Positions 1 to 13,078 of a stretch of 13,199 nucleotides of DNA are shown here, piece after piece. Every line of letters begins with the position of its first letter. Positions within the stretch are counted from its first letter, which is position 1. The stretch lies in assembly GCA_010028615.1 (NCBI GenBank), contig RHAS01000009.1, positions 1 to 13,199 of the forward strand, in the 5' to 3' direction. This DNA is from Actinomycetota bacterium. GTDB lineage: Bacteria; Actinomycetota; Actinomycetes; Actinomycetales; Microbacteriaceae. The notes under the pieces were generated by a model. It saw only the letters and a program-made list of their open reading frames with translations, ran no database searches and had not been told where the DNA came from. Made by a program: the position numbers and the translations under genes.

Positions 1-53
1 ACGAATTGGTGTTATTCATGAGTAAAGTATGGTATTGCCAGAATTGATTTTGA
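1..53 (+). other. Unresolved junction with upstream gene
   Basis: Three frames end here: frame 2 stops at TAA 23-25 after seven readable codons, frame 1 at TGA 19-21, and frame 3 at TGA 45-47. ATG 18-20 overlaps the TAA at 23-25, a spacing typical of coupled phage genes, but opens only nine codons (MSKVWYCQN) before TGA. The last codons of an upstream phage gene probably lie here, but too little is present to assign a product or a frame. Confidence 0.3.
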
Positions 54-305
54 CTGCCAGCACAGCGGGCAGCGACTAACAGGAAGAAAATTGAAGGCTC
101 TAGGGGTGGAGAGCAATTTGTACCAAATACAAACGCCGCTAGGTCAGCGCGAAAGCGTTCCGTTAAAGGCGTTACATATACAGCATTTTACGACGCACTA
201 GAAATAAAGACAATTGAATCCGGTATAGAAACTAAGGCAGCTTCGCGCCGAGCCGCGAGAAGGACCCTGCAGACACCTGGAGCACTAAAGCCTCGCCTCA
301 ACTCG
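54..305 (+). other. In-frame 5' extension of the giant ORF with possible non-canonical start
   Basis: Reading the giant gene's frame backwards from ATG 306, no stop occurs until TGA at 51-53. The 84 codons translate to protein-like sequence, for example VKGVTYTAFYDALEIKTIES, followed by a basic stretch that blends into the Arg/Pro-rich N-terminus after 306. There is no ATG, GTG or TTG in frame. ATT at 90-92 is preceded by AGGAAG at 81-86, with about five bases between AGGA and ATT, a good ribosome-binding arrangement. Another in-frame possibility is ATG 18, but it is cut off by TGA at 45 and 51. Either the gene starts at ATT 90, or the true start lies upstream and the first 60 bases carry an error or recoding event. 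Confidence 0.5.
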
Positions 306-3300
306 ATGGGTCGAGACTTAAACCCATCGACAGCCAGGAACGCTGACCTTGACCCATATGTTCTTGAGGGAATCCCAACAATCAACCGTGGGCGAGGGGT
401 ACTCGACCCAACCCCAGGTGGAAAACCGGCAAGATGGGTCCCACGAGCACGGCCAGCTTCCCGTGTAGACATACCAAAAACTCCGGATAAACCGCAGCGC
501 AGACTTGACAGGTCGCTTGCACCGACGCCAAAACCGCCAGCAGCCCCACGCCGGCGCAGCACGCTTGCGTGGTTGCCTGATGATGCAGATAAATGGACAG
601 AGCGCGACATGCGCCAGCTGTCTGAACTGCAAGCACGTTCAGGGCAGTCATTTGCGGAATTTGCAAAAACAAATAATTTGTTTGTCGACGATGTTCGAAA
701 TGCAATTCAAACGCACAGTTCCCGCCGCAAAAAGCGTATGGCGAGCTTCAAGAAGCGTTTCCCAAAGCTTCACAACGTCATAAATCAGCTTGGTGCTGTT
801 AGGGCAGAGGCCATGGACGCGGTGTCCGACGGTGCTATCAAAGATTGGCCATCGATGGTTAGATGGGCGTTTAAGGACCCAGAACTTAAGCGTCAGCGTT
901 TAACGGAGCGCGCAGTTAATGACCTTTTCAATAACGTTGCAGACGGTCTGGACCCAGATAGGCGCTCGAATACAATATTGGGTTTTGTACCATCTCGTAG
1001 CAACCCGTCTGAAAAAGTAAAAACATTTGCAGAATCAGACAAGCTCCCATTGGGATTTGAGCCGCGATTTAAGAAAACGCGCGACAGCATTCAATCAACT
1101 GGAAATATATCTTCTGTTGTTGAGCGCGCAGCCCGTCGTCCCCAGCAAAGACTCGACAGGATTAGTAGACCGACTGCAGATACGCGCGCCGCTTATGGCA
1201 GGCTTAACGATTTTGCTGGCATTGCAGGACGAATGGCGACGCCCACGGGGCCAGACTCTGGGTGGACAAACCAGGAAAAGCAGGTCTGGAGAGCGCAGCA
1301 ATGGCAGAAAAAGGTGCTATTTGATGGAGTGTTCAATTCACTACATAGGAATGCATCAAAAGCGCTTCAGGCATTCATTGCAAAGTATCCAGACAAGATG
1401 GCTGCAGCAAGGGCAATATTAGACCTTAACGAAAATGACCTTAAGGCCCTATTTACCCCACACTGGAGCGAACTTGGTGCGGCAGGGCTGCAGCCCCCTC
1501 GCCCAACGGCGGCTGATTTGCCGTTGCTACCATCAGAGGTGGAGCAAGCAGCGCTTATTAAGCGACCGTTATTACGCGCATTTTTGGATGAATACAAAAA
1601 GATGGCTCCCAACGGAACCCTCGCCAGACTTGATGTCGACACGTTGACAAACGAGGACGTTGAGGAATTATTCAATCGCTACATCCTGCCGGAGATGGTA
1701 GACCCGACAACACCAACTATCGGACAGGCGGAAGACATAGCTAGGCGAATTCTGCAGCCAGGAAATGAAAATTCACCGCTACGCCTTCTAGACAACGTTC
1801 TATTTATGGCCGGAGACGACGCATTCACTCTGGAGGGAAAGCGTCGAATTCTGGAAGAGCGCTTAAACGCCGGTCAAGCTGCTGGCACGTTAAGCCCGTC
1901 TGCGGCAACAAATCTACAAAATCAAATGGACGCCATCGATGAGGAGCTTGCCAAGCTAATTGATGATGCCAATGCTGGACGGCCGCTTGATTCAACAATT
2001 CCATACACGGGTACGGAGCCAAGCGACGAAGAGCCAGTCGACACTCGTAGGCGCATGCCCAAATGGGCCGAAGAACGCCCTGTTATTACATTTGAAGAAT
2101 CTCCAGATGAATACATCATGTTCCTGCTTGAGCATGCGAATGATGAATTGGGTGACCACCCAGAATATGGGCTTATAACACGCGAGGAATGGGACGCGTG
2201 GGGTGAGGACATTAAGGAGCGACAGGAACAGGCAATGAAGGTCTACATGGAGGGAGGCTCCCTCGAGGCCCAAGATGCCATATTGGCGCTCAATGCAGAA
2301 ATAGAACAGTGGATAGAAATAGGTAGAAATAGTCCGCCAACACGACCACCGTCACAGCGCTGGATTCCAGAAGAGACAGATGATGAAGAAGAGCCTGAAG
2401 AGCCTCTTGAAATGTACGACGAATGGGGAATTCTTGACGAAGACTGGGTATGGAACTCGCAGCATGGCTCGCCGTCTGAGCTCGGAGTTACAGATGACCC
2501 GTCCACGTGGGGTTTGCATCCCGACAACGTCGATGAATTCGGCGAGTTAATTCCATTATTAGAATTGAAAGAATTCATTGAAAGTCTTTCTATATCAAGG
2601 AAAGAAAAAGACGACCTCCTTGAGCGACTTGAAAGCAGTGAGTGGACTGACCCTCACAACTCACATATAGCTCAACGGTATCTGCCACTCATATCCGAAT
2701 TGCTAGATAGGTTCGTCTCTGACCCTGGCGGTGGGCTAACCATAAGTCCAACTGAGCCTGCCCAGCTTCCCGACCTAGGGGGTTCTGATACAGACGTAGG
2801 ACTATCAGACCCAGGTGGCCCGAGACTCAGGCGATTCTTCCCATACTTACCGCGACAAATTAACTGGGATGCCGCTGGTGAAATGTTTAAGCGCATCACA
2901 GAACGACTTGGTGGCGGAACAGCGCAAAAGGGCAGATACAGTACCGCTTCACGAGGCACCGTTTTTGCCCCCGGTCAGTACGAGGATATGAGCCCCCAGC
3001 AGCTTCAAAACGTATTTATTGAAGCTGCCCAACAGGCGAGAGAGCTCTATCTTGGGCAAAGTAATGAGTCTCGGAGCGCTAGGCAGCAAATATGGGATTT
3101 ATTATCTGCTGGTAGAACGGCAGATGAAATCGCTCAGGAATTAATTATATTCGGCGCAGAACAACCAGACCCAGATTATCCAGCAACTCCACTCGACATT
3201 AGAAACGCCATCGTTAAAGCTGCGGCAACACAGTATGCAGTCGAAAATAACATTGCGGTAAACCAAGTCTCCCAACTTCTAAATGCTGCCGATACAGCAT

Positions 3301-6300
3301 TTGCAGCGGACCAATCGCGTCAAGATGCGTTACGTAAAACGCAAATCGAAAGACTAAAGACGTCATTGGAACAGTTATTCCCAGGTCAGACACCGCGCGA
3401 AATAGCAGATGCCATACCTGGCCTCAAAATGGCAGCCGAGCGTGAGCTTGAATGGGCAAACAGGATGTACCAGGAAGCACGGGCCCATGCGGCAATTCTA
3501 AGAATGCAACTGGCCGAAATCGCACAAACATTCCCGTTGCCAACCGCTCGTCGTGCTCTATATCTAAAGCCGGACGGTAAAACGTTTACTGATGACCCAT
3601 CCAGAGGTGTTCCGGTATTCCAAGACCCTGATACCGGCGAGCTTACAACCGATAGTAAGTTCGGCTGGCCTCAGGCATATGACGAGGGCTGGGACCCTAC
3701 CACCGACACGCGCGCTCGTTTAGATAATCGCCAAAATAGATGGTGGCGTCAAAACTACGGCTATGAAACACCGCCAACCACTATTCCGGGACCAGGCGGA
3801 GAGGACTATGTAATCCCCGGTACTGGAAAACTGTATAAAGGTCCACTGCGACAATTCCAAGAAGCACTACAGATGCATGTGCGCAAATATGGCGACGCAG
3901 GCCTGTCTGGTGTTGGCGCATACATTTATAGTTCTCACACTGCTCGCATACGGCAGCTAGACGACGTCTCTCGAATGCTCACCGATAGAACATTGCGAGC
4001 AGATGCTCAACGATTTGGCATATCGGGTTTTATGGGGCGCGTAGGCGGACCAAAGGAATATGAACAACGCGCCAGAAAAGCCGCCAGAGTCCTCGCCGGG
4101 GGTAGGTTCAAGCGTCGCGATGTGTCGCAATTGTTGGATTACGATAGTGACGGTTTCCCAGTAACGCGGGCAATGCGCCAACAATATTCTGGATTGTCTG
4201 GAAAGTTTATGGCTGCTGCTGATGAATTTTCTCTCCAGAGCAGGCTAAACCCTGAAAATGTTGACTTTTTTCAACATTTATCGCCCGCCGAAAAGAAGTA
4301 TATGCGGGCTCTATATAAAGATGTTCAAGACCTTATTGCTGTTCCTAAAAATAAACCACTGAGAAAGAAAAGACAAGTCCGTGGAGATTCGCGCACGCGC
4401 GATGAGATACTTGCTGACGCGTTTTATTCCGGCATAGAAGAAAACCGTGGTGATATTAGCGGAAGAATGGGATTGAAGCGCAATCTAACTGATGCTAAAG
4501 CCGTTGCACGTAGTAATCCAAAACGTTGGCAGCGCCGATATATGACGGCTCGTAATAGTTTTAGAATGCTTACGCCGCGCAAGGGCAAATCACAAAATTA
4601 TCGTCTTGAACAAAGAGAACTACCGGACTCAATATTTGGTCCCGTACGCGGACTATACCTAGTTGACGCAGATTCAGGCAATGTTATTGATGGGCCATTT
4701 ACAGCAAATGAAGCTGCTGTTGCTGCAGGTGAGTTGACGGCACCAGAAAAAGCTAAAGGCGCTGCAAAACGCGTAATTGCACAAAATTACCCGCGCCCAT
4801 GGGAGCAGTATCCAGAAGTAATCGAAGCCGTAGCGTTCGGTGTTGCACAACCATTCATCGAGTTTCTAACACTTGATTCTCACAAAATTAGTGACATGCG
4901 CAGTACCGTATATGACACACAAAAAGGCGAAGTAAACGAACGCGCACTGGCCCTAGATAAAGGCGTGCCACAAAAAGCTTCCGATACAGCAATATTTAGC
5001 CGTGACCCAGAAACCGGCGAACTCATGGTTCTCCTCATTCAGCGAGCATTCGGCCCGCATAAAGATGAGACAGGCGCATGGGTCTTGCCAGGAGGTTTTG
5101 CCGACCCGGGTGAAACAGCACTAGAAACAGCTCTGCGCGAACTGGAAGAAGAAGTTGGACTGAAGGTATCGCCAGACCAGGCGCGTGTAAAACAGATTGG
5201 CACTATTATTGCCCCAGATTGGGACGTCAGGTTCACAAAAGGCGTCGAGGTGAGTGGGACAGCACTATTTGTCCCCTCTGATGTTGCGTTTAAAGCAGGT
5301 GACGACGCTTTGCGCGCTCAGTGGTTCCCAGTTAGGGATATTGCTGATGGAAAACTTCCAATTGGGTTCGGGCACATCGCATGGATTCGCCATGGAGCAT
5401 ACCTCGAATCAGACGAACCAGCATTCACGCCGTTCGATGCCGACACAGCAACACGACTCGAGAGGCTGGAGCGTGCTACGCGCATGCGCAACAAAGAGTT
5501 AATAGAGATATCTAATTCATGGCGCAAAGAAATAAACCGCACGCGTGACAAAGATAACAAAGTTAAGCTGTTTGATGAAAACAATCTCGGTGGATTTGAT
5601 GCATGGGAATTAATTCCATCTGATGACATGATTGAATCAGGCGTCCGCTCGCGAGCCAAAATATTTGGTCGCAGCCTGGACCCACAAGATATTACTGGCG
5701 AAACACTACGAATTGCGCCTACACAGCGTGCAAAAGTTCAGTCGAATTTTGGTCCGAGTATTACTGGGAATATGGGCAATGTCAGCGCATCGCATGTCTA
5801 CAAAATGCATACAGATGGTAAGTCAGCCAATGAAATCAAGGGTTCGATGGCTGGATTTTCTGATGACGACATAACACGCGCAATTCTCGCATCCGCAATT
5901 ACTCTTTCAAAATCGTCGGAAGGTTTGTCACCAGAAGATAAATCTATTTTTGAGCGCCTTAACGCTAAGGGTGAATCTGCAGCTGATGTTGCGCGCAAAA
6001 TGAATATGACGGTGGGAGAAGTAACTTCAGCCGCAAACAAATACCTTGAAATGCTGACAAACACAGAATCGCCAGTAAACAAGGCGTTCAGGAAAGCAAT
6101 AAAAAGTGATAAAAAGTTATCTGGTGTCGAAAAAGAGGTTTTAACCCGCAGATTAAATGGCGCATCAATAAAAGATGCAGCGGCGTTTCTCGGAATAGCA
6201 GAGGATGAATACCCAGGACGCGAAGCCAAGTTATTTGCCAATCTGCGCAAACGCAAACCAGAAGCATTTAAGTCATCGGGCCAATGGTCCAATAATCTTG

Positions 6301-9300
6301 CATCGCTCCTTACCGACCAAGAAATATATATGAGATACGTGCATGATGGGCGTAGTCCAAAGCGCATAGCAGAATCTTTTGGCATGGATGAAGCAATGGT
6401 CAAGCGCATTGCGAAAAAATACGCCCGTTGGCGTGATAAAAATGCACCGCTCGAAACTGCAGCATTAAGAAATGCTTTCTATGTACACGGTTCCAACTTG
6501 ACCGTCGCTGAAAGCCAATTAATGCGCAGAGTCATAGATGGGGAATCCGTCAGCTCGTTCGCAAAACGTACTAACATGCCGTCGAAAGCAGCGTCGCGTC
6601 TCTACAACAGCGCTATGCGTAAAATGCACATGTCATCTGGTGCTGCGCCAAAGACTCGAACATTTAGTGCAAATATATATAAAGCAATGCCGGAGCATTG
6701 GATTTCCCCATTAATGCCGGCAGACCTAAACCCAGCCGATGGCGGTATATCTGGGCGTATGGCAAAACCGTCAGCTTCAGCAAATGCAAAAACCTCAAAT
6801 AAAGCTAACGAGCGTCTCCGTGGACTAGTGACAGCGCCGATAGCCGACCTTAGGGCAATGGCTCTTGATGTTCGCGAAGAGATGCGCGACAGAATTATAG
6901 ACGTCCCTCAGGCGGCAATGATTGGTCATCCTGTCCTTGGCGGACATGAAGGCGTTGAAAAAATGAACGTCCTCGGTGCGTACATTAGTCGCACGCTCGA
7001 GGATGCCGCATTGGATGGCGTATTGCAGGCTATCCGTAAAGCTGGTACTAAGTTCCTGTCTGGAGACGAAAAAGACAAAGCCGCAACAGAAGCTGTCGAT
7101 AAAGCACGTCGTAAATTATCTGAAGAGTTGTGGATGAAGCGCGACATGCTCGAGCTGGTTCAGTCAATCCATCACATGATGGACTCTGCATCGTGGCCGT
7201 GGTTGAATTGGGGTCAGGACAATCCTGAATGGAAGCGCCATAAGAGCATCGTTGCCACAATGGATATGTTCGACATATCTACCCCTTCTGGACGACAGAA
7301 GTACATCAACGCCGGCTTTTATTTGCCGTTGACTCGCCGCGAGACAGAAGCATTCATAAACAAAGTTTATGAAAACAATGGAATTGCTGGGAAAATGGCA
7401 ACCCCTGGACCTCGCAGGTGGGCACAACTTCGGGACCTATACCAGGTTCTCGGCGTCAATCCGGATGCGACCGACGATGAACTCAAAAAGGCATACAGGG
7501 CCAAATCTCGAGCTCTCCACCCAGATTTAAATCCTAATAATCCTCAGGCTGAAGAGCAGTTTAAAGAGCTCGGTGAAGCATGGGAAACTTTAGGAAATAC
7601 GCGGCATAGAACTAACTATGACGAGTGGCGCAGAGACAATTCTTCTCAAAGACGAGTAAGTGAGCCACGGCCAGAAGCAGATGACTTTGACTATACGCCG
7701 CCATCGGAGCCCGCAGAAGACCCGCTAAACAATAACCAATTCATGACAGACCAGAATGGTCGGGTGTGGCTAAGACATAACCCGAGACTCCATGATTGGC
7801 CAACAGTCCCATTCACAGACAGCACAATTTTCCCGCAACGTCAAATGACGAGCGAAGAATTCGATGAGTGGTCAGATTGGACGCGGCACCGAATACAGCC
7901 GTCGCGCCCTGTTGGAAGTGCCCTGTGGGGATGGGAACAGCGCGGCCGTGATGTAAACAATCCGCCGATATCCGATGACCCATTCGACGGGTTTGATTTT
8001 GGCTCAGGCCCAATGGGAACACCGCCAAATCCGATGCCCAACGGTCCTGGTAGTCCATTCTGGAACCAAATACGAGACGACCTTGGTCCAGGCGCGACAT
8101 ATGAGGAAATAGCTGATGAAGTACGACGTCGCATAGAGGATGGAGATGGGCCCGAACCGCAATCTCCATATCGTGGGCCGTATTACTATACTCCAAGTGG
8201 GTCAGGTGATATTGCTGGGCGAATGGCTTCGTCATTGCCGCCACTTGATGACAGTGCTCAAAAACGTCTAAAACTTGGCGCTTTACCATCGTCTTATGAC
8301 TCTGCAGAGTTAGTAAAAGCGTATCCAACTCCGACAATTAGCGCATACGCTCCGAAGCCTGGCGAAGTTGCAATAGCTGTAACAACAACATTTGGCGGCA
8401 AAACATACATATCACGCTATAGGTATGACAATGTGTACAGGCCCATTATCGAGGCAATGATTGCATCTGTTCAGCAGCCTGCGAGGCGCGGCAAAAAACG
8501 ATTTGTATCCGTTGGTGGTCCAGCCGGTTCTGGAAAAACAACAGACCGCAAAACTGGAGCACACGGCATACCAATGCCACAATTCGCGGTACATGTTGAT
8601 GCGGATGAAATAAAAACACTTCTGCCGGAAGCAAGACAACTTCATGCCGCAGGTAATCCGCAGTGGGCAAGCGCCGTGCATGAAGAGTCGCGCATTATTG
8701 CTGACCTTGCTCTGCAGGAAGCGATTCGCGATGGCCTAGATGTTGTTTATGACTCAACTGGCCAATACAACTCCGGTTTTGACACATTAAAAGCGGCACG
8801 AGCAGCTGGATACGACATTGTGATGCACTACAACACGGCATTGCCGGGTGCGTTACAACGCAATATTGAAGCTAGGTCGGCAAATGACCCACGAACATTG
8901 CCAGACCACTTCAATAGTGCTGTTATGCAGAGGAACTTCAGAATAATGCCAGATGTTGCAAAGTCGGCAGATGAGTTCTATTTATGGGATTCTACCGACA
9001 TTGGGGCAAGAAAACTTCTTGTTGAAAAAACAGGGCAGACTTCACCTATTAAAGTTTTACATGAAGATGCCTATGTATATGGTGAGTTTGATGACTCATC
9101 ACAGGCAGTAAAACGAGGCGGACGCCCAACAGCAAATATACCGACGCTACGATTTGCTGTCGGCAGCATTGAATCTCAAGTCATAGATAGGTTTGAAGCC
9201 GGTAAATCAATAGATGATATTGCCGCAGAACTGCCGGCTATCCCCAAAAATCACATCTTTGACATAGTCACACGTGGTTTTGTAGACCCGACTTTTGTAT

Positions 9301-10385
9301 ACACTCCGCCACGCCCATCTCAAGCCCCACGGCCGCCGGCAGAGACTGCAAAAAAAGTTGATGACTTTGTTGAAGACGACCAGTTAAGAAATACATGGGA
9401 TTCGCTAGACGATGTAAACAAGCAAATTGTGAAAGACGTATTGGCAAAACAGCCGAATGCGCTTGACAGATTTGAAGCCACCAATATGCCGATGGACATA
9501 ATCATCTGGGCTGCTCAGAATCCAGGAATAGTTGGAAGCATGGGGCGTGGTGGGGACATTGCTGGGCGAATTACTCAACCAGCTGGCGGTTGGGACGACT
9601 TCAATGAACGCCGCAAAATGAAGAATGCCCCAACATATAGAGGTAAACCATGGAGAGATGTTGTTGCGACTCTCGATGGGATGCCGTGGCCATTCAAGAC
9701 ACAGAAGAAGCAGTACCCTAAAACAGGAGAGCCAGGACTCTCGTACTTCCGTGGCGAATTCCCCAATGAGCCCAACATATGGGTCGACTGCCTTTTGTGG
9801 AGAGATGAAAAAGGCGAACTAGTGGGAATCCTCAACCACTACCCAGTGGATATGCCGCTAGAGAAAAAGGGCAACTTCAATATATTTATTGACCCCAAAG
9901 CCAAGCGACAGGGTATTGCAACAGCTCTCGTAAGTGAGGCCATAAAGAGGTACAACGTTGACTTGAGACAGCAGCGATACTCAAGGGAGGGAGCTGCTTT
10001 TATTAACGAGTTTGTGCGCCGTTTGCCAGAAAATTCCGGTGAAGTTGGAGGCAAAATGGGCATCAGTCAAGCAGATGCTAAAAGAGCCCTAAAATTTGGG
10101 TGGGGTAAGTCGCGCAGGAGGCAGCGTTCTGGATTTGACTTGCGCGATTCAAGTTTCTGGAAATGGCTATATGAAGAGGGTGGGTGGTCGCCCGAAGAGA
10201 TTTCTGAATTTGTCATAAACGAAGCGTACCGCCGCCAGGGATGGAACATCCGCACAAATCGTGGATATGGCACTTCTAAGAAGCCAAATATTGCCGAAGA
10301 AATGTATTCTCCAGAAAAAATAAGACTAGAGATACAGCGCGACCTAAGCAACGCCCAAACCAGGGCAGGTGAATCAGCATCATGA
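306..10385 (+). CDS. Giant multidomain phage head-region protein (putative polyprotein), 3359 aa
   Basis: One uninterrupted reading frame, about 370 kDa at 110 Da per residue, ending in TGA that overlaps the next ATG. Order of parts: basic Pro/Arg-rich N-terminus (1-100); mixed helical region; strongly acidic Asp/Glu/Trp-rich region (about 560-850); long helical region (about 890-1150); NUDIX domain (about 1560-1698); five tandem HTH-like units (about 1830-2107); unrecognised region (2150-2358); J-domain (about 2378-2441); Gly/Pro-rich linker; zeta-toxin-like kinase (about 2730-2910); GNAT fold (about 3155-3240); basic C-terminus. A motif like GIAGRM recurs near module boundaries. I saw no signal peptide or membrane segment. 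Its place immediately before the capsid gene suggests a head-assembly or packaged-cargo role, which is inference. ATG 306 has no good Shine-Dalgarno, and the frame is open back to 54, so translation may start earlier (ATT 90). Not a tape-measure by position. The frame is certain; the function of the whole is not. Confidence 0.93.
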   Translation: MGRDLNPSTARNADLDPYVLEGIPTINRGRGVLDPTPGGKPARWVPRARPASRVDIPKTPDKPQRRLDRSLAPTPKPPAAPRRRSTLAWLPDDADKWTERDMRQLSELQARSGQSFAEFAKTNNLFVDDVRNAIQTHSSRRKKRMASFKKRFPKLHNVINQLGAVRAEAMDAVSDGAIKDWPSMVRWAFKDPELKRQRLTERAVNDLFNNVADGLDPDRRSNTILGFVPSRSNPSEKVKTFAESDKLPLGFEPRFKKTRDSIQSTGNISSVVERAARRPQQRLDRISRPTADTRAAYGRLNDFAGIAGRMATPTGPDSGWTNQEKQVWRAQQWQKKVLFDGVFNSLHRNASKALQAFIAKYPDKMAAARAILDLNENDLKALFTPHWSELGAAGLQPPRPTAADLPLLPSEVEQAALIKRPLLRAFLDEYKKMAPNGTLARLDVDTLTNEDVEELFNRYILPEMVDPTTPTIGQAEDIARRILQPGNENSPLRLLDNVLFMAGDDAFTLEGKRRILEERLNAGQAAGTLSPSAATNLQNQMDAIDEELAKLIDDANAGRPLDSTIPYTGTEPSDEEPVDTRRRMPKWAEERPVITFEESPDEYIMFLLEHANDELGDHPEYGLITREEWDAWGEDIKERQEQAMKVYMEGGSLEAQDAILALNAEIEQWIEIGRNSPPTRPPSQRWIPEETDDEEEPEEPLEMYDEWGILDEDWVWNSQHGSPSELGVTDDPSTWGLHPDNVDEFGELIPLLELKEFIESLSISRKEKDDLLERLESSEWTDPHNSHIAQRYLPLISELLDRFVSDPGGGLTISPTEPAQLPDLGGSDTDVGLSDPGGPRLRRFFPYLPRQINWDAAGEMFKRITERLGGGTAQKGRYSTASRGTVFAPGQYEDMSPQQLQNVFIEAAQQARELYLGQSNESRSARQQIWDLLSAGRTADEIAQELIIFGAEQPDPDYPATPLDIRNAIVKAAATQYAVENNIAVNQVSQLLNAADTAFAADQSRQDALRKTQIERLKTSLEQLFPGQTPREIADAIPGLKMAAERELEWANRMYQEARAHAAILRMQLAEIAQTFPLPTARRALYLKPDGKTFTDDPSRGVPVFQDPDTGELTTDSKFGWPQAYDEGWDPTTDTRARLDNRQNRWWRQNYGYETPPTTIPGPGGEDYVIPGTGKLYKGPLRQFQEALQMHVRKYGDAGLSGVGAYIYSSHTARIRQLDDVSRMLTDRTLRADAQRFGISGFMGRVGGPKEYEQRARKAARVLAGGRFKRRDVSQLLDYDSDGFPVTRAMRQQYSGLSGKFMAAADEFSLQSRLNPENVDFFQHLSPAEKKYMRALYKDVQDLIAVPKNKPLRKKRQVRGDSRTRDEILADAFYSGIEENRGDISGRMGLKRNLTDAKAVARSNPKRWQRRYMTARNSFRMLTPRKGKSQNYRLEQRELPDSIFGPVRGLYLVDADSGNVIDGPFTANEAAVAAGELTAPEKAKGAAKRVIAQNYPRPWEQYPEVIEAVAFGVAQPFIEFLTLDSHKISDMRSTVYDTQKGEVNERALALDKGVPQKASDTAIFSRDPETGELMVLLIQRAFGPHKDETGAWVLPGGFADPGETALETALRELEEEVGLKVSPDQARVKQIGTIIAPDWDVRFTKGVEVSGTALFVPSDVAFKAGDDALRAQWFPVRDIADGKLPIGFGHIAWIRHGAYLESDEPAFTPFDADTATRLERLERATRMRNKELIEISNSWRKEINRTRDKDNKVKLFDENNLGGFDAWELIPSDDMIESGVRSRAKIFGRSLDPQDITGETLRIAPTQRAKVQSNFGPSITGNMGNVSASHVYKMHTDGKSANEIKGSMAGFSDDDITRAILASAITLSKSSEGLSPEDKSIFERLNAKGESAADVARKMNMTVGEVTSAANKYLEMLTNTESPVNKAFRKAIKSDKKLSGVEKEVLTRRLNGASIKDAAAFLGIAEDEYPGREAKLFANLRKRKPEAFKSSGQWSNNLASLLTDQEIYMRYVHDGRSPKRIAESFGMDEAMVKRIAKKYARWRDKNAPLETAALRNAFYVHGSNLTVAESQLMRRVIDGESVSSFAKRTNMPSKAASRLYNSAMRKMHMSSGAAPKTRTFSANIYKAMPEHWISPLMPADLNPADGGISGRMAKPSASANAKTSNKANERLRGLVTAPIADLRAMALDVREEMRDRIIDVPQAAMIGHPVLGGHEGVEKMNVLGAYISRTLEDAALDGVLQAIRKAGTKFLSGDEKDKAATEAVDKARRKLSEELWMKRDMLELVQSIHHMMDSASWPWLNWGQDNPEWKRHKSIVATMDMFDISTPSGRQKYINAGFYLPLTRRETEAFINKVYENNGIAGKMATPGPRRWAQLRDLYQVLGVNPDATDDELKKAYRAKSRALHPDLNPNNPQAEEQFKELGEAWETLGNTRHRTNYDEWRRDNSSQRRVSEPRPEADDFDYTPPSEPAEDPLNNNQFMTDQNGRVWLRHNPRLHDWPTVPFTDSTIFPQRQMTSEEFDEWSDWTRHRIQPSRPVGSALWGWEQRGRDVNNPPISDDPFDGFDFGSGPMGTPPNPMPNGPGSPFWNQIRDDLGPGATYEEIADEVRRRIEDGDGPEPQSPYRGPYYYTPSGSGDIAGRMASSLPPLDDSAQKRLKLGALPSSYDSAELVKAYPTPTISAYAPKPGEVAIAVTTTFGGKTYISRYRYDNVYRPIIEAMIASVQQPARRGKKRFVSVGGPAGSGKTTDRKTGAHGIPMPQFAVHVDADEIKTLLPEARQLHAAGNPQWASAVHEESRIIADLALQEAIRDGLDVVYDSTGQYNSGFDTLKAARAAGYDIVMHYNTALPGALQRNIEARSANDPRTLPDHFNSAVMQRNFRIMPDVAKSADEFYLWDSTDIGARKLLVEKTGQTSPIKVLHEDAYVYGEFDDSSQAVKRGGRPTANIPTLRFAVGSIESQVIDRFEAGKSIDDIAAELPAIPKNHIFDIVTRGFVDPTFVYTPPRPSQAPRPPAETAKKVDDFVEDDQLRNTWDSLDDVNKQIVKDVLAKQPNALDRFEATNMPMDIIIWAAQNPGIVGSMGRGGDIAGRITQPAGGWDDFNERRKMKNAPTYRGKPWRDVVATLDGMPWPFKTQKKQYPKTGEPGLSYFRGEFPNEPNIWVDCLLWRDEKGELVGILNHYPVDMPLEKKGNFNIFIDPKAKRQGIATALVSEAIKRYNVDLRQQRYSREGAAFINEFVRRLPENSGEVGGKMGISQADAKRALKFGWGKSRRRQRSGFDLRDSSFWKWLYEEGGWSPEEISEFVINEAYRRQGWNIRTNRGYGTSKKPNIAEEMYSPEKIRLEIQRDLSNAQTRAGESAS
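489..1160 (+). repeat. Two copies of a KPQ-R-LDR peptide motif in the N-terminal region
   Basis: Residues 62-69 (nt 489-512) read KPQRRLDR and residues 278-285 (nt 1137-1160) read RPQQRLDR. Both sit in basic, proline-rich, probably unstructured stretches and are followed by a short segment containing proline and threonine. The second lies about 20 residues before the first GIAGRM copy. It may be a short linear binding motif; the role is unknown. Confidence 0.5.
1986..2840 (+). other. Acidic, scaffold-like region of the giant protein
   Basis: Residues about 561-845 are rich in Asp, Glu and Trp, with runs such as ETDDEEEPEEP and repeated E-W-D-x-W or D-E-W patterns, and end in a Gly/Pro/Asp linker. 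Phage scaffolding proteins and scaffold domains fused to capsid proteases are often acidic and helical, and no separate scaffold gene lies between this ORF and the capsid gene. Composition is visible directly; a scaffold role is inference only. Confidence 0.35.
4983..5402 (+). other. NUDIX hydrolase domain inside the giant protein
   Basis: Residues about 1560-1698. The full NUDIX box is present: G1597, x5, E1603, x7, then R1611-E1612-L1613, E1615-E1616, G1618-L1619, an exact match to GX5EX7REUXEEXGU. It is preceded by AWVLPG, as in ADP-ribose and related nucleoside-diphosphate pyrophosphatases. Such enzymes use the glutamates to bind Mg2+ and cleave a diphosphate linked to a nucleoside. The catalytic residues look intact. 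The substrate cannot be read from the sequence; ADP-ribose or another NAD-related dinucleotide is a reasonable guess. Confidence 0.9.
5793..6626 (+). other. Array of five helix-turn-helix-like units inside the giant protein
   Basis: Units start near residues 1830, 1874, 1938, 2002 and 2065. Four share the layout L-[ST]-x(2)-[EQ]-x(n)-G-x-S-x(3)-A-x(n)-[AV]-x(n)-K, as in sigma-70 region 4 and LuxR-type HTHs, for example LSPEDKSIFERLNAKGESAA and LTDQEIYMRYVHDGRSPKRI. Spacing is 44 to 64 residues, and the units end in basic helices. The copies are strongly diverged, so the array is old or under diversifying selection. DNA or RNA-polymerase binding is suggested by the fold only. I assign no target. 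Confidence 0.65.
7437..7628 (+). other. DnaJ-type J-domain inside the giant protein
   Basis: Residues about 2378-2441. It begins DLYQVLGVNPDATDDELKKA, has the diagnostic HPD tripeptide at 2405-2407, and ends with the helix IV-like NYDEW. J-domains stimulate ATP hydrolysis by Hsp70/DnaK through HPD. It is followed by a long Gly/Pro/Asp-rich linker reminiscent of the flexible region after J-domains, but without zinc-finger or C-terminal substrate domains. It lies about 19 residues after the GIAGKM copy at 7380. Recruitment of host DnaK during folding or assembly of the giant protein is a plausible inference. Confidence 0.92.
8211..9571 (+). repeat. Identical 14-bp DNA repeat at two motif copies
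   Basis: ATTGCTGGGCGAAT is present at 8211-8224 and again at 9558-9571, encoding IAGR plus the start of the next codon. Bases on both sides differ, including codon-level differences (GAT against GAC just upstream). Related but diverged copies occur at 1221, 6747 and 7383. Identity at the DNA level, and not only at the peptide level, is compatible with recent duplication or recombination at module boundaries, although strong codon preference could also produce it. Confidence 0.6.
8493..9035 (+). other. Zeta-toxin-like P-loop kinase domain inside the giant protein
   Basis: Residues about 2730-2910. Walker A is GGPAGSGKTT, with the lysine at 2744. Then follow HVDADEIKTLLPEAR, carrying the acidic residues typical of the zeta-toxin fold, a helix with conserved Glu/Arg (HEESRIIADLALQEA), and the strand VVYDSTG. 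Zeta toxins phosphorylate UDP-N-acetylglucosamine and are held in check by an epsilon antitoxin; related P-loop kinases act on other small molecules or RNA. No antitoxin-like gene is visible in this window. Family assignment is fairly sure, substrate unknown. Confidence 0.85.
9770..10020 (+). other. GNAT-like acetyltransferase domain inside the giant protein
   Basis: Residues about 3155-3240. The pattern is a strand with an acidic turn (LLWRDEKGELVGILNHYPV), then NIFIDPKAKRQGIATALVSE, which contains the acetyl-CoA-binding signature R/Q-x-x-G-x-G/A (RQGIA, Arg at 3201), followed by the helix of GNAT motif A. The expected C-terminal motif B is short and ends in a basic region, so the domain may be compact or incomplete. 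It follows the motif copy at 9555 and precedes the one at 10041, so it occupies a discrete module. Acceptor substrate unknown. Confidence 0.75.
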
Positions 10386-10711: not shown

Positions 10712-12049
10712 ATGTCTTACGACGAGTCCAGAGTACGCGAGCTCCAAGCCGCGCTACGAACCAAGATGGCTGAGAACAAGGCGATTGCCGATTCGTTCAA
10801 GGTCGAAGACGGCACAGTTGTTGTGTCGGCAGAGCAAAAGTCCGCATTCGACACCAACATGCGTGACATCCGTGAAATCCGCAGCCTTATCGACGGGCTA
10901 GAGCAGATGAAGGATGCAGACGCATGGGGCCGCGAAGAGGGCTCATCCGTTGCTGTTGAGTACAACGCAAAGAGCGCCGAGGCTGCAATGACTGCAGCTG
11001 CACGCGACCTTGGCTTCAAGAGCATTGGCGAGATGTTCATCAACTCGCAAGAGTTCAAGTCACTCCAGGGTGGCCGCAACGGTGCCAACATGATTACGCC
11101 TTGGCAGGCCGGCGTTTCGCTGACAAACTATGGCGTCAAGGACGTCTACTCAGCGCTGCCGACCGGTAACCCAGGTTCGTTTGGCACCATCCAGCGTGAC
11201 CCAATGGTGACACCGCCAACCCGCACAAAGCGCGTTCGCGACCTCTTCCCAACACGCACGACAACTGCTGCTGTGATTGAGTACTTCCGTCAGCTTGGTT
11301 TCACCAGCGCTGGTGGCGGCACCAACAACGCAGCTCCTGTTGCTGAGCGCTCGGGTAGCAGCTTTGCTGCCAAGCCGCAGTCCAGCATGGTCTTCGTGGG
11401 TGAGCAAGCGCCAGTTCGTACGCTCGCCCACTGGGAGGCAGCACACCGTAACGTTCTAGCCGATGAGCCGCAGCTCCGCAGCATCATCGACAACGAGCTC
11501 ATGTACGGTCTGCGTCTTCTCGAGGACGACCAGATTCTGAATGGCGACGGCACAGGCGAGAACCTGACCGGCGTTCTGCAGACAACTGGCATCCAGACCT
11601 ATGACTGGTCAGACGGTGCGGCCCTTCCGGTTGCCGACACGAAGGCCGATGCGATTCGTCGCGCGGCGACGCTGTCGTTCCTCTCGTACTACGAGCCAAC
11701 CGGCGTGGTTATGCACCCGAATGACTGGGAGGACATCGAGCTGACCAAGGACCTCAACGGGCAATACCTCGTTGCTGTCTCGGTTGCGATGGGTGGCGAG
11801 CCAAAAATCTGGCGTCTCCCAATCATCGACACCCCGGCAATCGCAGAGGGTACCGCTCTCGTCGGAGCTTTCGGCACCGGCGCACAGCTGTACGACCGCG
11901 AGCAGGCCAGCATCCGCATCTCGGAGCAGCACGCAGACTTCTTCGTGCGCAACGCGATTGTGGTTCTCGCCGAGCAGCGTCTCGCCCTCGCGGTGAAGCG
12001 TCCAGAGGCCTTCGTCAAGGTGACCTTCGACGGCGCACCAGAGGCCTAA
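10712..12049 (+). CDS. Major capsid protein, HK97 fold
   Basis: A 445-residue phage major capsid protein of the HK97 family, the main shell subunit. Residues 1-75 form charged helices (DESRVRELQAALRTKMAEN and RDIREIRSLIDGLEQMKD), as in the N-terminal delta/scaffold domain. The segment PVRTLAHWEAAHRNVLADEP followed by LEDDQILNGDGTGENL (270-285) and the strand leading to GVLQT are typical of the family, as are the C-terminal DTPAIAEGTALVGAFG and RISEQHADFFVRN. Length is normal for a capsid protein carrying its own N-terminal scaffold domain; cleavage, if any, would be expected near residues 100-125. No copy of the giant protein's GIAGRM motif is evident. It ends in a double stop, TAA TAG. G+C and codon choice look higher and more biased than in neighbours. 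Confidence 0.95.
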   Translation: MSYDESRVRELQAALRTKMAENKAIADSFKVEDGTVVVSAEQKSAFDTNMRDIREIRSLIDGLEQMKDADAWGREEGSSVAVEYNAKSAEAAMTAAARDLGFKSIGEMFINSQEFKSLQGGRNGANMITPWQAGVSLTNYGVKDVYSALPTGNPGSFGTIQRDPMVTPPTRTKRVRDLFPTRTTTAAVIEYFRQLGFTSAGGGTNNAAPVAERSGSSFAAKPQSSMVFVGEQAPVRTLAHWEAAHRNVLADEPQLRSIIDNELMYGLRLLEDDQILNGDGTGENLTGVLQTTGIQTYDWSDGAALPVADTKADAIRRAATLSFLSYYEPTGVVMHPNDWEDIELTKDLNGQYLVAVSVAMGGEPKIWRLPIIDTPAIAEGTALVGAFGTGAQLYDREQASIRISEQHADFFVRNAIVVLAEQRLALAVKRPEAFVKVTFDGAPEA

Positions 12050-12116: not shown

Positions 12117-12641
12117 ATGGAAGAAAGTTTCTCATTTCTTGAGCTAGGGCCAATGCCCGAATTCGATGAATTGCGCGCTGCAGTCTTATCTTTTAGTGAG
12201 AAAGACTGGGTTGAATATATAAATAGAAAATCCGGAATCGCCGCCGAAAACAGCCAGACAATCCCACTGTTGCACGACCCCCGTCAATCGGCGATTATAG
12301 AACATGCTCGGTACCGGCAGTTCAAGCATCACATAGAGCGCGTCTATGAGATTACTGCGCAACACCTCGGATGTTCTGCGGTTAGACAGGCAATGTTCGC
12401 CAGGATGATGCCGCATGCGAATATACCCAAGCACCGTGATAAAGGGCCAATGACTGCAAAGTGTCATAGGGTTCATGTGCCTGTTTTTACAAATCAACAG
12501 TGTTTATTTTCTGTTGCCGAAGAGACCCGACATATGACTGAAGGCAATATATGGGTTATAGATAACGTCGGGAAATATCACTCGGTAGTAAATGCTGGTA
12601 GCACTGAACGTATACATTTAATAATTGACATACTGGCATAA
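12117..12641 (+). CDS. 2-oxoglutarate/Fe(II) dioxygenase, aspartyl/asparaginyl hydroxylase-like
   Basis: A 174-residue protein with the double-stranded beta-helix signature of the aspartyl/asparaginyl beta-hydroxylase family. The iron triad is H106-x-D108 (KHRDK) and H155 (KYHSVVN), and R165 (ERIHLI) is the expected 2-oxoglutarate-binding arginine; HRVHVP at 117-122 and GNIWVIDN at 143-150 are typical core strands. The catalytic set looks intact. Members hydroxylate side chains of proteins or free amino acids and other small molecules; the substrate here is unknown. ATG 12117 is the first start after the in-frame TAA at 12108 and keeps the conserved N-terminal strand; the Shine-Dalgarno is poor, with only a G-run about 11 bases upstream in the hairpin. 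The next ATG (12153) would remove 12 residues. Confidence 0.87.
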   Translation: MEESFSFLELGPMPEFDELRAAVLSFSEKDWVEYINRKSGIAAENSQTIPLLHDPRQSAIIEHARYRQFKHHIERVYEITAQHLGCSAVRQAMFARMMPHANIPKHRDKGPMTAKCHRVHVPVFTNQQCLFSVAEETRHMTEGNIWVIDNVGKYHSVVNAGSTERIHLIIDILA

Positions 12642-12679: not shown

Positions 12680-13078
12680 GTGTCAGAACGATTTTGGTAC
12701 GGCGCAACGGTACTAAATGTAATTGATGGCGATACGGTTGACCTTATGATTGACCTCGGATTTAACATTCACCACAAAATAAGGGTTCGACTTTATGGTG
12801 TAAATACCCCGGAATCCAGAACGTCAAACAAAGAAGAAAAAGTCTTAGGCCTTAAAGCAAAAGACTTCACAAAAGACTGGCTCACATCCCATAAGTGGGT
12901 TTATATCAATACCATTCCAGATAAGAACGACAAATACGGTCGCATCCTGGCGAAGATATACAGTTCTGAAAATATCAACGACCCGTCGACTGCTTGTCTC
13001 AACAAGGACATTATCGAATCAGGTTTAGCTCGGGAATATTATGGAGTCGGGGACAAGACATGGACGGAATTCAAATGA
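12680..13078 (+). CDS. Staphylococcal-nuclease-like (thermonuclease/SNase) protein
   Basis: A 132-residue SNase-domain protein starting at GTG. The signature runs VIDGDTVDLMIDLG (D16, D18, matching D19 and D21 of the staphylococcal enzyme), RVRLYGVNTPES (R37 and E45, matching R35 and E43) and DKYGRILAKIY (R88, matching R87). The catalytic Arg-Glu-Arg set is present. N42 replaces the calcium-ligand aspartate of the reference enzyme, a change that could alter metal use. Family members are calcium-dependent phosphodiesterases cutting DNA or RNA. There is no signal peptide, so it acts in the cytoplasm or is packaged. Length is close to a minimal SNase domain. It ends in an ATGA overlap with the next gene. 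A role in DNA degradation or mRNA turnover is possible, but none is shown. Confidence 0.92.
   Translation: MSERFWYGATVLNVIDGDTVDLMIDLGFNIHHKIRVRLYGVNTPESRTSNKEEKVLGLKAKDFTKDWLTSHKWVYINTIPDKNDKYGRILAKIYSSENINDPSTACLNKDIIESGLAREYYGVGDKTWTEFK

What the first reader, a model, noticed from the sequence alone, without database searches (positions are those of the whole stretch)
1218..10061. A repeated GIAGRM-type motif punctuates a 3359-aa phage polyprotein
Seen: about 12 copies of a small-I-small-G-basic-M motif, several immediately before unrelated folds (J-domain, kinase, GNAT) and one after the HTH array. The modules share no ancestry, so the motif is the common element. Inference: it is a cleavage site releasing enzymes, a tag docking each module to the capsid or portal, or a boundary enabling module exchange. 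Lack of an evident copy in the capsid protein argues against a general prohead-protease site. I know of no named family with this layout.
Basis: partly seen in the sequence, partly recalled or inferred. Interest (0 to 1): 0.92.

Follow-up and report, generated by a model that had tools for sequence, protein, structure and literature searches.

The report
Private motif punctuating giant phage proteins
A family of uncultured phages builds giant many-enzyme proteins whose parts are separated by a short tag that is the same throughout one phage but different from lineage to lineage, most likely the spot where the protein is cut into separate enzymes.

Summary
The motif is real. The window protein carries 9 copies (6 strict [IV][AGST]G[RK]M against 0.02 expected), not 12, between NUDIX, sigma-4/HTH, J-domain, zeta-kinase and GNAT modules. 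Close homologues keep most copies at the same boundaries, and two large module gains or losses begin and end at a motif. In relatives it is genome-wide, in several giant proteins of the portal-to-capsid block and in tape measure proteins, and private to the lineage: ISGRM, LSGSM, GPVGKM, RLSSGR and STRS types, homogeneous across unrelated proteins of one contig (0 of 5000 shuffles as high). Codon spellings differ, so selection acts on protein. Copies avoid Pfam domains (1 of 102 inside; 12.4 expected). Relatives encode an S78 prohead protease, in some lineages fused to the motif-bearing giant protein. Best explanation: processing sites of a phage-encoded protease in 'polyvalent' proteins. Cleavage is inferred, not shown: the S78 domain is 72-84% identical between motif classes and the capsid lacks the full motif, so docking tags or another reader remain open. 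Not every relative has a recognisable motif. I found no description in the papers searched. New variant of a known kind.

The parts
306..10385 (+). Giant multi-domain (polyvalent) protein; the open frame reaches upstream to about base 54, N-terminus outside the window
1221..1235 (+). motif copy IAGRM (aa 306)
   Evidence: aligned ISGRM, ITGRM, ITGKM in relatives
4020..4034 (+). possible further copy ISGFM (aa 1239); F, Y or M at position 4 in 6 of 7 rows
4455..4469 (+). motif copy ISGRM (aa 1384)
5760..5774 (+). motif copy ITGNM (aa 1819)
6747..6761 (+). motif copy ISGRM (aa 2148), after the HTH array
7383..7397 (+). motif copy IAGKM (aa 2360), 17 aa before the J-domain
8211..8225 (+). motif copy IAGRM (aa 2636), before the kinase module; the aligned site in L028 (contig G008) reads GPVGKM
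9528..9542 (+). motif copy IVGSM (aa 3075); about 290 extra aa lie between this and the next copy in G001 and G004
9558..9572 (+). motif copy IAGRI (aa 3085), before the GNAT module
10044..10058 (+). motif copy VGGKM (aa 3247), after the GNAT module; G002 lacks the GNAT module and has one copy there
4992..5348 (+). NUDIX domain (PF00293, 1.6e-16)
5919..6428 (+). sigma-70 region 4-like / HTH array (PF08281 7.9e-7 and weaker HTH matches)
7434..7622 (+). DnaJ domain (PF00226, 6.3e-22)
8472..8933 (+). zeta-toxin-type / AAA_33 P-loop kinase domain (PF06414, 2.7e-18)
9774..9956 (+). GNAT acetyltransferase domain (PF00583, 7.8e-4; 20.1 bits, curated cut-off 20.7)
10712..12049 (+). major capsid protein, HK97 type (PF05065, 9.6e-44)
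11063..11092 (+). capsid LQGGRNGANM, conserved as LxxG[RKQH]NGANM in 36 of 36 capsids; possible processing junction
   Evidence: role inferred

Best explanation
The motif is a protein-level linker signal, read in trans, that separates the modules of giant 'polyvalent' virion-block proteins. Most likely it is the site at which a phage-encoded protease, best candidate the S78 (assemblin-like) prohead protease of the same gene block, cuts the long precursors into separate enzymes during virion assembly, so that NUDIX, transcription-factor-like, J-domain, kinase and GNAT modules travel in the virion and enter the host as separate proteins. Each phage lineage has its own spelling of the site, which its giant proteins share. 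Shown here: the motif, its linker position, its conservation at boundaries, module gain and loss at the motif, homogeneity within a genome, switching between lineages, and linkage to an S78 gene or S78-fused ORF in relatives. Inferred: cleavage, its agent, virion packaging and injection. Component odds: trans-read linker signal 0.9; proteolytic site 0.55; S78 as the agent 0.45.
For: (1) Enrichment: over 12 contigs 180 copies in the portal-to-capsid block (plus 6 kb past the capsid) against 1.9 in shuffles; elsewhere 21 against 1.65, of which 10 are in tape measure proteins, 10 in two further large ORFs of G011 and G012, 1 in a 156-aa ORF. (2) Homogeneous within a contig: 42 ORFs of 600 aa or more with 2 or more copies, mean cosine 0.85, shuffled mean 0.28, 0 of 5000 as high; with one contig each of classes A, B, C and E 0.996 against 0.215. 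(3) Protein-level: 17 DNA spellings for 17 copies in G001, 17 for 19 in G002, 23 for 24 in G012, 32 for 37 in G015. (4) Linkers: 1 of 102 copies overlaps a Pfam domain, 12.4 expected; in two low-confidence AlphaFold models 7 of 8 copies lie wholly and 1 partly in residues with pLDDT under 50. (5) Two large module indel events among five homologues start and end within 4 aa of a motif in the pairs where they form one gap. (6) An S78 protease lies in the same block in relatives (PF04586 3.5e-11, phrog_80 3.7e-28), and in L180, L181, L187, L202, G011, G012 and G016 it is the N-terminal domain of a 2510-4740-aa motif-bearing ORF. (7) Motif class clusters on the S78 tree, 11 changes against 28.4 shuffled. 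G006 and G007 have capsids grouping with class C, but their S78 domains are rejected from class C (AU p 0.002; group named after seeing the trees), and their motif is of the class A/B kind.
Against: No cleavage data exist. The S78 domain is 72-84% identical between motif classes, close for an enzyme whose site would have changed from ISGRM to STRS. The capsid, its presumed main substrate, lacks the full motif and keeps one junction sequence in every class. In G001 and G002 the S78 ORF has no copy, and in G015 it is a separate 474-aa ORF without one. Tape measure proteins, which are not inside the prohead, also carry the motif. The capsid-tree conflict is weak: class A as one clade is not rejected (p 0.197). 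Many relatives show no recognisable motif: in the de novo scan it was the top pattern in 14 of 39 loci, and 3 or more copies of the classes tested were found in 32 of 80 capsid loci and 32 of 80 protease loci, many of them short. S78 was not found in the window's own 80%-complete assembly (no positive control).
Confidence: 0.5

Rival explanations
1. Docking or packaging tag: each copy binds an inner-surface, portal, scaffold or tail-tube partner so that every module is loaded into the virion. The partner changes between lineages and the tags change with it.
For: Copies also in tape measure proteins, which are likewise injected (injection recalled). The S78 protease and the capsid junction are nearly constant across motif classes. 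A conserved but faster-evolving head-block protein (orf686, 35-58% identity except within the pairs G001/G002 and G009/G010, found in 12 of 12 contigs compared) could be such a partner.
Against: One tag would suffice to load a continuous chain of 3000-5500 aa; a copy at almost every module boundary makes more sense if modules are separated. Doublets 7-10 aa apart fit either reading.
Confidence: 0.2
2. Processing site read by a protease other than S78, for example the zincin-like MPTase found in class C relatives or an unrecognised phage or host protease.
For: MPTase-PolyVal with ArdC-N in G011, G012 and G016. S78 looks too constant to have switched specificity.
Against: No MPTase match in the class A giant proteins scanned, which were the window's and G001's only. 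S78 was found in 10 of 12 contigs, the 2 without it (G008, G013) being 34-kb and 39-kb stretches. A host protease would not be expected to differ among such close phages (inference).
Confidence: 0.15
3. The motif matters mainly as a neutral seam for module exchange: short repeated linker sequence spreads by recombination and marks past joints.
For: Large module indels coincide with motif copies.
Against: Nearly every copy has its own codon spelling, so DNA-level copying does not keep the motif alike. Selection on the peptide is needed.
Confidence: 0.08
4. Homotypic sticker: copies bind each other, condensing the giant proteins into an inner body, so all copies in one phage must match without any separate reader.
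For: Explains uniform spelling within a genome and free drift between lineages with constant protease and capsid.
Against: No known sticker of this kind matches (recall only). Does not predict placement at module boundaries.
Confidence: 0.05

Closest known systems
Polyvalent proteins of phages and conjugative elements (Iyer et al. 2017, PMC5512222; abstract, outline, Peptidases section and search passages seen)
   Same: Giant proteins joining unrelated enzymatic domains, encoded beside virion genes, thought to be injected and to be processed by embedded peptidases; relatives carry the MPTase-PolyVal and ArdC-N domains.
   Different: That paper says assemblin-like peptidases are always C-terminal, whereas here S78 is N-terminal in the fused ORFs; it reports no repeated punctuation motif in the parts read.
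Prohead-protease processing of injected head proteins in SPN3US (PMC10052503; search passages seen), and in T4 and phiKZ (recalled)
   Same: One phage protease cutting several head and ejection proteins at a short motif (A-X-E in SPN3US).
   Different: There, apart from the protease itself, the cuts found remove N-terminal propeptides. Here the motif sits between modules, up to 12 copies per protein, and differs by lineage.
Polyproteins of plant and animal RNA viruses, such as potyviruses (recalled)
   Same: Several sites of one spelling per virus, differing between viruses, with an embedded protease.
   Different: DNA phage, unrelated protease fold, several giant ORFs and not one.
Phages Brevibacterium Cantare and Gordonia GMA6, DalanDe, Chidiebere
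   Same: Nearest deposited capsids (47-49% identity) and S78 (39-42%); DalanDe has S78 inside a 1633-aa protein.
   Different: None of the top repeated patterns in their large ORFs is one of these motif classes.

Membership tests
Polyvalent proteins | several domains with disparate activities in one polypeptide | tested here: met
   NUDIX, sigma-4/HTH, DnaJ, zeta kinase, GNAT
Polyvalent proteins | encoded by a phage near virion genes | tested here: met
   adjacent to capsid; between portal and capsid in relatives
Polyvalent proteins | hallmark MPTase and/or ArdC-N domain (common, not obligatory) | tested here: inconclusive
   no match in the window protein, present in relatives G011, G012, G016
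Polyvalent proteins | packaged in the virion and injected | not testable with these tools
   no proteomics at hand for these uncultured phages
Polyvalent proteins with assemblin-like peptidase | peptidase at the C-terminus (PMC5512222) | tested here: not met
   S78 within residues 30-190 of 2510-4740-aa ORFs
Substrates of an S78 prohead protease | S78 gene in the same phage | tested here: inconclusive
   present in relatives; it would lie outside this window and was not found in the window's assembly
Substrates of an S78 prohead protease | same site in the capsid protein | tested here: not met
   no full motif in capsids; conserved LxxG[RKQH]NGANM in 36 of 36 may be a partial match
Substrates of an S78 prohead protease | cleavage at the motif | not testable with these tools
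   needs mass spectrometry or an in vitro assay
SPN3US-type (A-X-E) sites | A at P3 and E at P1 | tested here: not met
   no A-x-E among the fixed or leading residues of any class (which lists the seven commonest residues per column)

The most novel reading that the evidence does not exclude
A clade of DNA phages makes its injected effector set as self-processing polyproteins with a private cleavage code: one site spelling serves dozens of boundaries across several giant proteins and the tape measure protein, and the whole code has switched in concert several times (ISGRM, LSGSM, GPVGKM, LSSGR, STRS) while capsid and protease domain stayed 72-84% identical.
Probability: 0.45. Interest if true: 0.9.

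Novelty: new variant of a known kind. Interest (0 to 1): 0.8.

Why it matters
It turns the loose idea that phage polyvalent proteins may be processed into a testable one: exact predicted boundaries, a candidate protease, and natural switches of the site between close relatives. If it holds, module borders of giant phage proteins of unknown function could be read from sequence, and the clade becomes a natural experiment in how a recognition site with dozens of copies can change in concert. If the motif is a tag and not a cut, it would be a packaging or ejection signal shared by head and tail proteins, which would be at least as surprising.

Tried and rejected
DNA-level repeat or recombination site: rejected, since codons differ at almost every copy. 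A general property of large phage proteins: the same scan on seven loci of cultured phages gave other patterns, weaker or from low-complexity stretches (strongest 10^-14.8, P.AH.H in Chidiebere). Homologues of the window's giant protein in deposited phages: none over its first 1565 aa; in the rest 45 records, those listed matching J-domain, kinase or NUDIX-region stretches. LQNA repeats in DalanDe gp27: 3 copies, dropped as too few. The N-terminal LSGQI of the G001 protease was not counted, as it lies at the start of the S78 match (judgement). orf686 and orf496 as reader candidates: PDB profile searches gave no match for orf686 and a best E of 0.17 for orf496. Structure search of the two AlphaFold models: not done because mean pLDDT was about 54. 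Host: not settled. The window sits in a 1.21-Mb, 316-contig assembly, and genome contigs gave three contigs of mixed origin.

Limits of the statistics. Motif regular expressions were chosen after seeing the repeats, so the shuffle enrichments are partly post hoc. The de novo Poisson scores (10^-17.7 in L012, 10^-13.1 in L028) are not, but are uncorrected for the number of patterns, and a motif of this kind ranked first in only 14 of 39 loci; the B-class loci L034 and L042 were recognised by eye. One search dropped ORFs under 600 aa or with fewer than two copies. One search used only proteins with a Pfam match; the G012 2354-aa and G015 3387-aa ORFs (no Pfam match) and the G001 exonuclease ORF were left out. 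Class labels on the S78 tree were assigned by me, from one or two copies in some contigs; L201 is mixed. Some copies in the G012 protease ORF lie in near-identical internal duplications.

Full report
What is in the window. One 3359-aa frame (306-10385, + strand) is followed by an HK97-type capsid gene, a small aspartyl/asparaginyl hydroxylase-like ORF and an SNase-like ORF. The giant protein holds NUDIX, sigma-4/HTH, DnaJ, zeta-type kinase and GNAT domains. Strict [IV][AGST]G[RK]M occurs 6 times (shuffles: mean 0.02, maximum 1), and the looser form 9 times. The protein starts before the called ATG: homology to G001 and G002 begins at base 57 in frame, at their residues 220 and 212.

Relatives. 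No near DNA match was found in 50,697 deposited phage records. In IMG/VR, three contigs encode a giant protein 54-56% identical in its best segment, and the best 80 of 305 capsid relatives were kept. I read whole or most of 14 such contigs. In G001 the block runs portal, S78 protease, orf496, exonuclease-type large protein, orf686, two further large proteins, the giant protein, capsid; other contigs vary on this.

The motif marks module boundaries. In an alignment of eight giant proteins the window's copies are matched by motif copies in G001, G002, G004 and G003 at most boundaries they share; G006, L027 and L028 align poorly. Two large indel events separate the five closest proteins: a segment of about 290 aa between the copies at 3075 and 3085, present in G001 and G004, and the GNAT module, absent in G002. 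In the four pairs where they form one gap of 285-460 aa, both ends lie within 4 aa of a motif. In the window-G004 pair the same segment breaks into three gaps (78, 118, 105 aa) whose ends are 7 to 88 aa from a motif. Four shorter differences (60-84 aa, all with G002 or G004) have 2 of 8 ends within 4 aa of a motif. Across 12 giant proteins (the window's and 11 of six contigs) 1 of 102 copies overlaps a Pfam domain, 12.4 expected; the exception, VSSG in the S78 domain of G011, is probably not a true copy. In AlphaFold models of aa 1370-2460 and 2620-3359 (mean pLDDT 54-55), 7 of 8 copies lie wholly and one partly in residues under pLDDT 50, where 42-43% of all residues lie; 6 of 8 are in coil and 2 in low-confidence helix. 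These models are weak evidence.

The motif is genome-wide and private to the lineage. A de novo scan of 39 capsid loci put a motif of this kind first in 14, among them ISG.M in L012 and L014, GP.G.M in L028, GLSSG or RLSSG types in L024, L039 and L064, STRS in L077. In 25 it did not, and in many of those no motif is recognisable (more contigs). Counted by class, 32 of 80 capsid loci and 32 of 80 protease loci had three or more copies (STRS not counted there). With lineage-specific expressions, 12 contigs hold 180 copies in the head block (1.9 in shuffles) and 21 elsewhere (1.65 in shuffles). Of the 21, ten are in tape measure proteins, eight in a 3061-aa ORF of G011, two in a 1216-aa ORF of G012, one in a 156-aa ORF of G002. 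Unrelated large proteins of one contig share one spelling: 42 ORFs, 64 within-contig pairs, mean cosine 0.85 against 0.28, 0 of 5000 shuffles as high; with one contig each of four classes 16 ORFs, 0.996 against 0.215. G006 mixes A-type and B-type copies. At two homologous places the spelling switches with the lineage: before the kinase module, SISGKM in G004 is GPVGKM in L028 (G008); near residue 44 of the tape measure protein are LAGRM (G002), LTGAM (G006), MTGSM (G004, not a formal match), RLSSG (G016) and STRS (G015, aligned within a few columns), while G001 and G012 have no clear copy there (5 of 7). Codons differ at almost every copy, so selection is on the peptide.

The protease. G001 encodes an S78 prohead protease (PF04586 3.5e-11; phrog_80 3.7e-28). 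In classes C and D it can be the N-terminal domain of a giant motif-bearing ORF: 2510 aa with 12 LSSG in G012, 4740 aa with 10 LSSG in G016, 2929-3222 aa with 7-8 GPxGxM in L180, L181, L187 and L202. In the class A and B contigs read it heads ORFs of about 785-1078 aa with 0-3 copies, and in G015 it is a 474-aa ORF with none. The G016 chain reads S78, sigma-4, KTSC, UvrD, RNase T, ArdC-N, MPTase, with LSSG copies between domains. Motif classes cluster on an S78 tree. G006 and G007 have capsids that group with class C, but their S78 domains are rejected from class C (p 0.002; the group was named after the trees were seen), and their motif is of the class A/B kind. That favours a reader that travels with the protease end of the block, but class A as one clade is not rejected on the capsid tree (p 0.197) or the S78 tree (p 0.182).

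The main difficulty. The S78 domain is 72-84% identical between motif classes and capsids 74-82%, and every capsid examined (36 of 36) keeps LxxG[RKQH]NGANM. A simple reading would want protease and capsid site to change with the motif. A reconciliation is possible but is inference: most spellings share a core of a small residue, then G (T in STRS), then often R, K, S or A, and the capsid junction has a similar core (LNSGRN in L039 beside that contig's RLSSG motif). Only outer positions would then have changed. A docking tag, a sticker or another protease would avoid the difficulty but explains less well why copies sit between the modules.

What is known. The closest concept is the polyvalent protein of Iyer et al. 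2017 (PMC5512222: abstract, outline, Peptidases section and search passages seen), where peptidase processing is proposed and assemblin-like peptidases are said to be always C-terminal. SPN3US gp245 cuts head proteins after A-X-E (PMC10052503, passages seen). Searches for prohead-protease motifs, for phage polyproteins and for the motif strings brought no description of this motif in the listings (open-licence PubMed Central only, listings capped). PMC9503650, PMC7824862 and PMC12810830 were seen as search passages only.

Verdict. The kind is known (polyvalent proteins); the private, lineage-switching punctuation is, as far as I could search, not described. Mechanism: proteolytic processing most likely, at about even odds.

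Noticed in passing
window 12117-12641: ORF resembling aspartyl/asparaginyl beta-hydroxylases (PF05118, 1.5e-19) right after the capsid gene.
   Followed up: no
window 12680-13078: Staphylococcal-nuclease-like ORF (PF00565 2.1e-14; phrog_452 1.3e-39).
   Followed up: no
window 1-56: Two in-frame stops just before homology to relatives begins suggest that the first bases of the contig are a poor or shifted end; the giant protein reaches beyond the window.
   Followed up: partly
L094:2997-5054: orf686: conserved head-block protein in 12 of 12 contigs compared, no PHROG or PDB match, with RCPEGYQ.GGRFTD and MVRRDGF.L.PVV-like blocks.
   Followed up: partly
L093:11568-13922: DUF6321 domain directly after the S78 protease domain; partial matches to this protein also lie just downstream of many capsids, perhaps DUF6321 (not checked).
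   Followed up: no
L094:12743-16600: DUF3626 domain (PF12294, 1.2e-9; recalled as ADP-ribosyltransferase-like) in a motif-bearing head-block protein, reminiscent of T4 Alt (analogy recalled).
   Followed up: no
tape measure ORFs of G002, G006, G015, G016: Lineage-specific motif copies in tape measure proteins, near a shared N-terminal place in 5 of 7 aligned, G004 loosely.
   Followed up: partly
L204-L225: Several S78 loci with smaller head ORFs in which none of the motif classes was seen; they may lack the system. L224 is an exception with class B copies.
   Followed up: no
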